DNA of 50,991 nt from positions 1 through 50,991 of the forward strand of contig JAUIIK010000021.1 in the NCBI GenBank assembly GCA_030431755.1. Direction: 5' to 3'. Made by a program: the position numbers and the translations under genes. Below, one piece after another: positions 24,307 to 27,778 of this stretch. The notes beneath the pieces were generated by a model. It was not told the DNA's origin, ran no database searches, and saw only the letters and a list, made by a program, of their open reading frames with translations. Origin of the DNA: Chloroflexia bacterium. GTDB lineage: Bacteria > Chloroflexota > Chloroflexia > Thermomicrobiales > CFX8. Position 1 is the stretch's first letter, and the number at the start of each line of letters is the position of its first letter.

Positions 24307-25542
24307 TCAGTCGGCGGAGAAGACCAGCACGGCGTTGTGGCCGCCGAAGCCGAATGAGTTGCTCAGGACATGCTTCAGCTCGGCATTGCGTGCGTCATGC
24401 GGCACGTAGTCGAGGTCGCAGTCGGGGTCCGGAAGCTCGTAGTTGATGGTCGGTGGGATAATGCCATCACGCAGGGCAAGCATTGAGAATGCCGCTTCGA
24501 TGGCCGGGGCTGCACCAAGCAGATGGCCAGTTGCGCCCTTGGTTGACGATACCGGCGGGGTCGCGTCATCGAAGGCGGCTTTGATGGCCATCGTCTCGAA
24601 CTTGTCGTTGAGCGGCGTCGAGGTGCCGTGAGCGTTGATGTAGCTCACCTCTGCAGGCGCAATCCCGGCGCGCTTGAGCGCGAGTCGCATCGCACGTGTT
24701 GCGCCTTCACCATTCTCACCGGGCTGGGTGATGTGGTGGGCATCGCCCGCCGAGCCATAGCCGGTCACGAACCCAAGGATCTCCGCGCCGCGTTCTATCG
24801 CGTGCGCTTCCGACTCCAGGACAAGCATCGCGCCGCCCTCGCCGAGGACAAAGCCATCGCGGGCGGCATCGAAGGGACGGCTGGCGTGGGCCGGGTCGTC
24901 GTTGCGCGTCGAAAGGGCGCCTGCTGCCGCAAAACCAGCCACAGAGGCGGGTGTGACCGCTGCTTCGACGCCGCCCGCAACCATCACGTCGGCGTCGCCG
25001 CGGACGATCGTCTCGAAGGCCTCGCCAATCGCGTGGGCTCCGCTGGCGCAGGCACTGACCGTGCCCATGTTTGGTCCGCGGAGGCCAAAGTGGATCGACA
25101 CGTAGCCGCTCGGCATGTCGACGAGGGTCATCGGAATGAAGAATGGACTGACCCGTCTCGGACCGCGCTCCTGGAGGGCGCGAACACCCGCTTCGAAGGT
25201 CCCAACGCCGCCAAGCGCCGTACCGATGAACACGCCCATGCGGTCGGCAGCGCCGCCGCCCACGGTCAAGCGCGCATGTTCGAGCGCCTCGGCGGTGGCA
25301 GCGACCGCGAACTGGATCACCCGGTCGGTCTTGCGCGCTTCCTTGCGGCCGAGGAGCTCAACAGCGTCGAAGCCTGGTGTCTCTCCGGCTATCTGAACCG
25401 GAAAGCCCTCGTCGTCGAAGCTCGCAATGCGCTCGATTCCACCTTCGCCCGCGATGATCCTGCGCCAGCTCTCTTCGCGGGTCGCTGCCAGTGGTGTTAT
25501 CAATCCGATGCCGGTGACGGCGATGCGCGTTTTCTCAGTCAC
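24307..25542 (-). CDS. fabF: beta-ketoacyl-[ACP] synthase II
   Basis: Condenses acyl-ACP with malonyl-ACP in fatty acid elongation. 411 residues. The Cys-His-His triad is C165 (SACASGAHA), H305 (NAHGTSTPLND) and H340 (GATGHLLGA), with the conserved Lys K335. The C-terminal NSFGFGGHNA is complete. GTG start at 25542, overlapping the upstream dehydrogenase gene by eight bases. Other fab genes are not adjacent, although acpS is elsewhere in the window. Confidence 0.95.
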   Translation of the reverse strand: MTEKTRIAVTGIGLITPLAATREESWRRIIAGEGGIERIASFDDEGFPVQIAGETPGFDAVELLGRKEARKTDRVIQFAVAATAEALEHARLTVGGGAADRMGVFIGTALGGVGTFEAGVRALQERGPRRVSPFFIPMTLVDMPSGYVSIHFGLRGPNMGTVSACASGAHAIGEAFETIVRGDADVMVAGGVEAAVTPASVAGFAAAGALSTRNDDPAHASRPFDAARDGFVLGEGGAMLVLESEAHAIERGAEILGFVTGYGSAGDAHHITQPGENGEGATRAMRLALKRAGIAPAEVSYINAHGTSTPLNDKFETMAIKAAFDDATPPVSSTKGATGHLLGAAPAIEAAFSMLALRDGIIPPTINYELPDPDCDLDYVPHDARNAELKHVLSNSFGFGGHNAVLVFSAD

Positions 25543-26494
25543 GTTCCAACACTTCCGGGTTCAGACAATGCGGCGGCTCGGTGCCCTCCAACACGGCAAT
25601 GATGTTGTCCACGGCGAGACGCGCCATCTCTGTCCGTGTCGCGACGGTCGCGCTTGCGATATGCGGCGTGATTGTCACGCGCTCAAAGGCATAGAGTGGA
25701 TGCGTCTGAGGTAGCGGCTCCGGATCGGTGACGTCGAGGCCTACTGCGCGCAGCTTCCCTGCTTCGAGGGCGGCGACGAGGGCGGTAGTGTCAATGACCG
25801 GCCCACGGGCAGTATTGATCAGGACTGCGTCATCTTTCATCATGCCGATGCGCTCGGCGTCAAGCAGCTGTCTGGTGCTGGGGGTCAGCGGCGTGTGAAT
25901 TGAGACGACGTCGCTCGTTTGGAGGAGCTCCGCGAGCGGCAAGTTCTCGTACGCAGCGCTATCACCCGCTGGATCACTCACTACGACCCTCATGCCAAGC
26001 GCCGACGCCATCTCGGCCAGGTTGCGACCGATGCGCCCGAAGCCGACGATGCCGAGCGTTGTGCCGGCAACGCCGCGGCCGAGAAATCGCATCGGGTACC
26101 AGGTTTCCCACTCTCCCGCCCTCGCCGACCGGTCGCCGGCAGACACTTGCCGCGCCGCGTCAAAAATCAGGGCCAACGCGAACTCGGCAGTCGTTTCAGT
26201 CAGAACATCGGGCGTCGTACAGACCGCGACGCCGCGCGAGGTCGCAGCCGGCACATCGATGTTGTCATAGCCGACCGCAAGGTTGCTGATGACACGCAGC
26301 GACGGATGCGCCGCCAGCACGTCATCATCTATGCGGTCAGTCAGCAACGTCAGCGCGCCAACCGCGTCGCTCAGGAGCTCGCGCAGCTGGTCCGGATCCG
26401 GCGGCAGATCCGAGTCCCACTCGGCAACCTCGAAGCGCTCGCGGAGCCGGTCAATCTCACTCTGGAACAGACGTCTTGTGACGGCAATTTTCAT
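25535..26494 (-). CDS. D-2-hydroxyacid dehydrogenase (glyoxylate/hydroxypyruvate reductase type)
   Basis: NAD(P)H-dependent interconversion of 2-oxoacids and D-2-hydroxyacids. 319 residues. Nucleotide motif GIVGFGRIGRNLAE near residue 150; catalytic Arg in NTARGPVID, Glu in TDPEPLP and His in TPHIASAT. It resembles glyoxylate/hydroxypyruvate reductases (GyaR) more than phosphoglycerate dehydrogenase, as there is no ACT domain. ATG 26494 with GGAG eight bases upstream. A TACAAT -10 box on the minus strand (26525-26520) could drive it with fabF. Confidence 0.9.
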   Translation of the reverse strand: MKIAVTRRLFQSEIDRLRERFEVAEWDSDLPPDPDQLRELLSDAVGALTLLTDRIDDDVLAAHPSLRVISNLAVGYDNIDVPAATSRGVAVCTTPDVLTETTAEFALALIFDAARQVSAGDRSARAGEWETWYPMRFLGRGVAGTTLGIVGFGRIGRNLAEMASALGMRVVVSDPAGDSAAYENLPLAELLQTSDVVSIHTPLTPSTRQLLDAERIGMMKDDAVLINTARGPVIDTTALVAALEAGKLRAVGLDVTDPEPLPQTHPLYAFERVTITPHIASATVATRTEMARLAVDNIIAVLEGTEPPHCLNPEVLERD

Positions 26495-26567: not shown

Positions 26568-26576
26568 TGTTATACT
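26568..26576 (+). promoter_or_regulatory. extended -10 promoter of the 6S-like RNA
   Basis: TGTTATACT at 26568-26576: a TGn-extended -10 identical to the ABC exporter promoter at 8044-8036. The -35 region is poor. The predicted start near 26583 coincides with the base of the RNA stem. Confidence 0.6.
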
Positions 26577-26582
26577 GAATCA

Positions 26583-26740
26583 TAGGGCGAGGTAGTCCGG
26601 ACGCGCGGGGTTCACAGTAACTCGAGCCTACATGAAATAGCTTTCGGGAGTTCTTCTGCTCCATAAGTCGGAGTCGTCGAAACGCCCACCTGCGATTGCA
26701 GGCTCGAAGCTATCCCGCGTGAAACCGGCGTCTCGCCCTT
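26583..26740 (+). ncRNA. 6S RNA-like rod-shaped noncoding RNA (candidate)
   Basis: The gap between the 2-hydroxyacid dehydrogenase and holA folds as one long rod. Closing stem 26584-26591 with 26732-26739 (AGGGCGAG/CTCGCCCT), four pairs 26597-26600 with 26725-26728, a ten-pair stem 26602-26611 with 26712-26721 (two G-T), then a large asymmetric bubble (26612-26621 opposite 26708-26711), stem 26622-26629 with 26700-26707 (TCGAGCCT/AGGCTCGA), and an apical part with 26640-26646 pairing 26678-26685 with one bulge. Length about 158 and a stem-bubble-stem plan resemble 6S RNA, which binds the sigma-70 holoenzyme in its central bubble. No open frame with coding character crosses it. Sequence identity to known 6S families is untested. 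Confidence 0.5.
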
Positions 26741-26776: not shown

Positions 26777-27778
26777 ATGAGCGTCGTCCTGCTCCACGGT
26801 CGCAATTCCGTCGACCTCGATGAGCGCCTCGCCGCATTGCTCGCGGAGCATGATCCTGGTGGCCTCAACACCGCGAAACTCGATAGCGACATTGCCAACG
26901 TCACCGACATTGCAGCCGCCGTCTCAACACCCGGATTCTTCGGCTCAGGCCGGGTTGTCGTATTGCGCGGCGTGCCGGGAGTTGATCGAAACGCCAGGGC
27001 GGATTGGGACGAACTGGAACCGCTGCTCACCGGCCAACCAGAGACAACGGTGTCGATCCTCGTCACCGGTCAGAAGATCCCGGCCAACCGCAAAGCGCTC
27101 AAGACCGCGAAAGCCCGCAAGTGGACGGTCGAGCTCTACGAGACGCTCTACGGGCGTGATCTGGAGGCTTGGGCCAGCAACCGCGCCAAGACACTCGGAG
27201 TGAAGTTCGAGCTGGTGGCCGTGCGGGAGCTACTGGACCGGCTCTACCCGACGAGCTGGCAGCGCGAGGACCGCTGGAACCCGCAGACACTTGACATGCG
27301 ACTCATTTCCACCGAGATCGAAAAGCTGGCAGCTGGCTGCGTGACCGGCACGGTCTCACAGCAGATGGTCCAAGAGCTTGTCGCCGACCGGTCCGGCGTC
27401 ACCGCCTTCAAATTGAACGATGAAACCTACGAGGGCCGAGCCGGCGCGGCACTGATTGAGCTTGACATGGTGCTTGCGAATGGTGAAGCGCCCGAGCGTG
27501 TTATCGGACAGATTGGCTACCAGCCGGGCGTGCTACTTGCCGCCGGCTATGTCCAGCGCTATGGCGTCGACACCGTCGCCGATGCCTCGGGCGTCAGCGC
27601 AGGGCAGCTCAAGGCGACGGTCAGCCGCAAGTCCGGTTGGCGGAACAGCAGCGGTTTGAGCAGTGCAGTAGAGGCGCTGCGGCGTTCGGAGTGGCTGGTG
27701 AAGACCGGACGGGCATCATCATCGGAGTCGGTGCTGACTCCACTCGTAGCTGAGATCGCCGAGGGCTTCCGCCGGTAG
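26777..27778 (+). CDS. holA: DNA polymerase III delta subunit
   Basis: Clamp-loader wrench that opens the beta ring. 333 residues. The N-terminal AAA-like fold has the family pattern LLHGRNSVDLDERL, then FFGSGRVVVLRGVP near residue 54; there is no functional Walker A, as expected for delta. The middle segment DMRLISTEIEKLAA and the C-terminal helical domain (SGVSAGQLKATVSRKSGW) are typical. Only a GA-rich stretch precedes the ATG. It follows the 6S-like RNA by 36 bases and may be reached by read-through from its promoter. The convergent rpsT stop lies nine bases away. Confidence 0.92.
   Translation: MSVVLLHGRNSVDLDERLAALLAEHDPGGLNTAKLDSDIANVTDIAAAVSTPGFFGSGRVVVLRGVPGVDRNARADWDELEPLLTGQPETTVSILVTGQKIPANRKALKTAKARKWTVELYETLYGRDLEAWASNRAKTLGVKFELVAVRELLDRLYPTSWQREDRWNPQTLDMRLISTEIEKLAAGCVTGTVSQQMVQELVADRSGVTAFKLNDETYEGRAGAALIELDMVLANGEAPERVIGQIGYQPGVLLAAGYVQRYGVDTVADASGVSAGQLKATVSRKSGWRNSSGLSSAVEALRRSEWLVKTGRASSSESVLTPLVAEIAEGFRR

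What the first reader, a model, noticed from the sequence alone, without database searches (positions are those of the whole stretch)
26568..26740. Rod-shaped noncoding RNA resembling 6S RNA between gyaR-like gene and holA
The 282-base gap has an extended -10 promoter whose predicted start coincides with the foot of a long rod: closing stem of eight pairs, a ten-pair stem, an asymmetric bubble of 10 opposite 4, another eight-pair stem (TCGAGCCT/AGGCTCGA), and an apical hairpin. Length, the stem-bubble-stem plan and a downstream gene reachable by read-through (as ssrS-ygfA in E. coli) fit 6S RNA. The primary sigma factor gene lies 2.4 kb upstream, on the same strand. 6S RNAs of this phylum are poorly known to me.
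Basis: partly seen in the sequence, partly recalled or inferred. Interest (0 to 1): 0.6.

Follow-up and report, generated by a model that had tools for sequence, protein, structure and literature searches.

The report
Divergent 6S RNA gene upstream of holA
The stretch encodes a 6S RNA, the small RNA that mimics an open promoter and holds the bacterial RNA polymerase in check; it is a divergent but ordinary member of a well-known family, here in an uncultured Chloroflexota bacterium where standard annotation would miss it.

Summary
The rod is real (-72.1 kcal/mol, z -4.6). Rfam RF00013 matches it end to end at 31.7 bits (E 5.9e-5 against all families), below the 46.4-bit gathering score, and it is the only 6S match in the genome. 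A covariance model built from 37 order relatives, none from the window's own family, finds it at 42.9 bits (E 6.8e-9). In 41 of 41 order genomes where both can be checked, the RF00013 match lies directly upstream of holA on the same strand, as here; 10 of 10 further loci sampled in the class do the same. Across 41 sequences 27 of 40 base pairs show compensatory changes, and the core sequence is conserved. Predicted product RNA: 5'-GUAGGCUCGAGUUA, initiated opposite C26631. Known kind, low surprise. The useful points are sub-threshold 6S genes in this family and a class-wide 6S-holA linkage. Expression, polymerase binding and product RNA were not testable.

The parts
26568..26576 (+). extended -10 promoter element TGTTATACT; predicted transcription start 26584
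   Evidence: sequence; TGNTA extended -10 at a similar distance upstream of nearly all order 6S genes; poor -35
26584..26739 (+). 6S RNA gene (ssrS), about 156 nt
   Evidence: RF00013 31.7 bits at 26590-26739; held-out model R1 42.9 bits at 26588-26736; fold z -4.63
26584..26629 (+). 5' strand of the closing stem, with internal loops; its last part 26622-26629 is the 5' strand of the 8-pair P2/downstream helix
26630..26645 (+). 5' side of the central bubble; predicted product-RNA start opposite C26631, template read towards 26618
   Evidence: the third base after invariant GAGCC is a pyrimidine in 40 of 41 order sequences; pRNA letters; homology to the E. coli start U44 applied from memory of its sequence
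26646..26687 (+). apical stem-loop (26646-26648/26685-26687, 26650-26652/26681-26683, 26658-26662/26670-26674)
   Evidence: the GGG/CCC pairs form in all 41 sequences
26688..26699 (+). 3' side of the central bubble
26689..26702 (+). conserved 3' central-bubble hairpin CCTGC-GATT-GCAGG, competing with the 3' strand of the P2 helix; candidate release switch
26700..26739 (+). 3' strand of the P2 helix (26700-26707) and of the closing stem
26777..27778 (+). holA (DNA polymerase III delta subunit), the conserved downstream neighbour
   Evidence: TIGR01128 128.8 bits, cut-off 80

Best explanation
26584-26739 (+) is the 6S RNA gene of this Chloroflexota genome, the only one found. It is transcribed from its own extended -10 promoter as a rod of about 156 nt. 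By homology, the central bubble (26630-26645 / 26688-26699) with its two flanking stems mimics an open promoter and captures RNA polymerase carrying the primary sigma factor, damping housekeeping transcription when growth slows. When NTPs return, polymerase copies the 5' bubble strand from C26631 into a short product RNA (predicted 5'-GUAGGCUCGAGUUA...). This unwinds the 8-pair helix 26622-26629/26700-26707, lets the 3' hairpin 26689-26693/26698-26702 form, and releases the enzyme. Shown here: family membership by sequence, structure, covariation and synteny. Inferred from homology: expression, polymerase binding, product-RNA synthesis and release.
For: RF00013 full-length match, E 5.9e-5 against all Rfam families, the only one in the genome (E 2.3e-4). 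Held-out model R1, made without the window's family, 42.9 bits, E 6.8e-9 over 97 kb, and the only hit in the genome, E 3.6e-7. RF00013 over its cut-off in 28 of 61 order genomes; the match lies directly upstream of holA on the same strand in 41 of 41 genomes where both are on one contig. All five genomes of the window's own family have it there. The 10 further class loci sampled are also at the 5' end of holA. 27 of 40 pairs have changes on both sides; 91.4% of cells paired against 79.8% shuffled and 37-48% when slid. Extended -10 conserved at the right spacing. Invariant GAGCC, GGG/CCC and the CCCACCTGC...GCAGG motif.
Against: The RF00013 score (31.7) is below the family's gathering score (46.4). 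The lower closing stem does not align base for base even within the window's family, though each member folds into a rod of its own there. No transcript, polymerase-binding or product-RNA data were available. No terminator was found before holA.
Confidence: 0.96

Rival explanations
1. The rod is a cis-acting 5' leader of holA (attenuator or riboswitch) rather than a free regulatory RNA.
For: It ends 37 bases upstream of holA on the same strand, no terminator was found in between, and the linkage to holA is conserved across the class.
Against: Full match to the 6S family in sequence and structure. In the loci fetched from other classes of the phylum, holA was not detected within about 1.5 kb of the RF00013 match. 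The conserved letters are those of the 6S bubble. Two Sphaerobacter-like relatives have a GC stem and T run right after the RNA, as in a terminator (sequence).
Confidence: 0.03
2. An Ms1-type RNA, which binds core polymerase rather than holoenzyme.
For: Ms1 is structurally related to 6S RNA (PMC9130861) and its sequence varies widely.
Against: The best and only significant Rfam match is 6S, the 6S core is kept letter by letter with RF00013-positive orthologues, and Ms1 is described from Actinobacteria with other neighbours.
Confidence: 0.005
3. A chance GC-rich inverted repeat, or a decayed gene without function.
For: The score is below the Rfam threshold.
Against: z -4.63; compensatory changes across 41 sequences with 0 of 500 shuffles as high; conserved promoter and position.
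Confidence: 0.005

Closest known systems
6S RNA / SsrS, Rfam RF00013
   Same: Length class, rod with closing stem, central bubble and apical stem, GAGCC / GGG / CCCACCU...GCAGG core, own promoter, downstream gene reachable by read-through.
   Different: 31.7 bits, below the gathering score; shorter apical arm than the 187-position model; the neighbour is holA, not ygfA.
6S RNAs of order relatives (e.g. G018, whose 2,741,033-base contig I recall as Sphaerobacter thermophilus chromosome 1)
   Same: Same position upstream of holA, same core, same extended -10 promoter.
   Different: The window has TCGAGCC/GGCTCGA where most relatives have TTGAGCC/GGTTCAA (compensated pairs), and a remodelled closing stem.
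Bacillus subtilis 6S-1 and E. coli 6S RNA (mechanistic models, PMC8876501)
   Same: A G-initiated product RNA is predicted, as reported for B. subtilis 6S-1; a 3' central-bubble hairpin that shares bases with the P2 helix, as in E. coli.
   Different: The hairpin here is 5 pairs against 9 in E. coli; mechanism not tested.

Membership tests
6S RNA (RF00013) | match to the family covariance model at or above the gathering score | tested here: not met
   31.7 bits against 46.4, though full length with E 5.9e-5. 28 of 61 order genomes pass it, and a held-out model from relatives finds the window at E 6.8e-9. The cut-off is an annotation threshold, not a property that defines the RNA, so it does not decide membership.
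6S RNA (RF00013) | rod: closing stem, central bubble, apical stem-loop | tested here: met
6S RNA (RF00013) | compensatory base changes supporting the structure | tested here: met
   27 of 40 pairs; 0 of 500 shuffles as high
6S RNA (RF00013) | conserved bubble and flanking sequence (GAGCC, GGG, CCCACCUGC...GCAGG) | tested here: met
6S RNA (RF00013) | orthology by position to genes that pass the family's score | tested here: met
   41 of 41 order genomes upstream of holA
6S RNA (RF00013) | abundant discrete transcript | not testable with these tools
   no RNA data; extended -10 promoter present
6S RNA (RF00013) | binds RNA polymerase holoenzyme with the primary sigma factor | not testable with these tools
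   no binding data available
6S RNA (RF00013) | templates product RNA from the central bubble | not testable with these tools
   a pyrimidine at the predicted start in 40 of 41 sequences is consistent, no more
Ms1 RNA | Ms1 gene neighbourhood (HAD hydrolase and others, PMC9130861) | tested here: not met
   neighbours here are a 2-hydroxyacid dehydrogenase and holA
Ms1 RNA | binds core polymerase | not testable with these tools
   no binding data available

The most novel reading that the evidence does not exclude
In this class 6S RNA and holA form a functional unit: read-through or processing of the 6S transcript couples supply of the replicative clamp-loader subunit to the growth-state signal carried by 6S RNA, by analogy with ssrS-ygfA.
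Probability: 0.15. Interest if true: 0.45.

Novelty: new member of a known kind. Interest (0 to 1): 0.22.

Why it matters
It places 6S RNA, with syntenic and structural evidence, in a Chloroflexota family where annotation at the Rfam threshold would leave it out, and supplies a better model for the order. The steady linkage to holA across the class gives a simple way to find further sub-threshold 6S genes and raises a testable link between 6S RNA and a replication gene. It changes no view of how 6S RNA works.

Tried and rejected
A DNA search of relatives with the gap itself found only one relative, G002, so covariance models were used. The holA protein scan of named genomes gave nothing. A first alignment of the five family members had wrong coordinates for G004 (A3) and was replaced by A4. 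Pair counts on A4 are weak because the lower closing stem is out of register among five sequences; the order-wide count is the one relied on. The mir-375 match (E 1.9, minus strand) is chance.

Full report
Observation. The gap between the D-2-hydroxyacid dehydrogenase gene (25535-26494, -) and holA (26777-27778, +; TIGR01128) is 282 bases. The extended -10 TGTTATACT (26568-26576) ends 7 bases before the rod. A sigma factor with regions 1.1 to 4, best matched by RpoD models, lies 2.4 kb upstream on the same strand.

Identity. Rfam at gathering thresholds finds only a tRNA elsewhere in the window. With permissive filters on the gap, RF00013 (6S) matches end to end at 31.7 bits, E 5.9e-5 against all 4227 families, and it is the only 6S match in the whole genome. 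In the order, 42 of 61 genomes have an RF00013 match at E up to 1, and 28 pass the gathering score. An independent search for holA in the same genomes shows that in 41 of the 41 genomes where both lie on one contig the 6S match is directly upstream of holA on the same strand, about 20 to 300 bases away.

Held-out test. A covariance model from 37 order sequences, none from the window's family, finds the window at 42.9 bits (E 6.8e-9) and nothing else in the genome. The 37 were themselves picked by RF00013, but the window took no part. The model also finds the gene upstream of holA in the two family members that RF00013 missed, so all five genomes of the family have it.

Structure. On 41 sequences aligned by MAFFT, 27 of 40 consensus pairs have changes on both sides, 91.4% of cells are paired (79.8% in shuffles, 37 to 48% when slid), and the covariation score is 0.385 against 0.187. 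The structure came from the same alignment, which favours it over the slid versions; relatedness can inflate the shuffle comparison; the synteny depends on neither. All five family members fold into the same rod although their lower closing stems differ. One example read by eye: GGGCGAG/CTCGCCC in the window is GGGTGAG/CTCACCC in G003.

The bubble that matters in 6S RNA is between the 8-pair helix TCGAGCCT/AGGCTCGA and the apical stem: 26630-26645 opposite 26688-26699. The 10:4 loop is one of the usual interruptions of the closing stem.

Mechanism, inferred. In the models of PMC8876501 the 5' bubble strand is the template of the product RNA, and the unwound helix frees the 3' strand to refold. 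Here the aligned start is C26631. That position is a pyrimidine in 40 of 41 sequences, so the product would begin with a purine: 5'-GUAGGCUCGAGUUA in the window. The 3' strand can form CCUGC-GAUU-GCAGG (26689-26702), kept in nearly all sequences, which competes with three pairs of the 8-pair helix. The position of the start rests on alignment by eye with E. coli 6S RNA, whose start is U44 (PMC8876501) and whose sequence I recalled.

Promoter. An extended -10 (TGNTA...T) lies at a steady distance, mostly 10 bases before the RF00013 start, in nearly all order members. The window and its family have weak -35 hexamers.

Distribution. Across 400 phylum genomes 102 match RF00013 (strict filters, so a lower bound). 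In ten further loci from the same class, 6S RNA is again at the 5' end of holA on the same strand, as in L116. In the other phylum loci fetched (other classes) a holA profile made from the order found none within about 1.5 kb. Several nearly complete genomes of one order family (genera g5, g13, g19) have no match with either model, and their holA has other sequence upstream.

Taxonomy. The order is Thermomicrobiales by inference only: G018's first contig has the length that I recall for Sphaerobacter thermophilus chromosome 1.

Known or new. 6S RNA in Chloroflexi has been reported (Wehner et al. 2014, as cited in PMC7726162). A search of the held papers for 6S RNA together with holA gave nothing relevant by title and abstract, so the class-wide holA linkage may be undescribed, but Wehner et al. 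itself was not read and may contain it.

Noticed in passing
L085-L095 (genomes G005, G009, G012, G014, G016, G022, G026, G036, G040, G046, G032): Three genera of one order family, several genomes 96-99% complete, have no 6S match with RF00013 or the order model, and holA has other sequence upstream: an apparent loss or extreme divergence of 6S RNA.
   Followed up: partly
L021 and L029, 3' flank of the 6S gene: The 3' strand of the 6S closing stem can pair with a downstream CCCCACC followed by a T run, so the end of the RNA may double as part of an intrinsic terminator in Sphaerobacter-like genomes; not seen in the window.
   Followed up: no
G140 and G438 (another class of the phylum): Two RF00013 matches per genome, possibly two 6S paralogues.
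   Followed up: no
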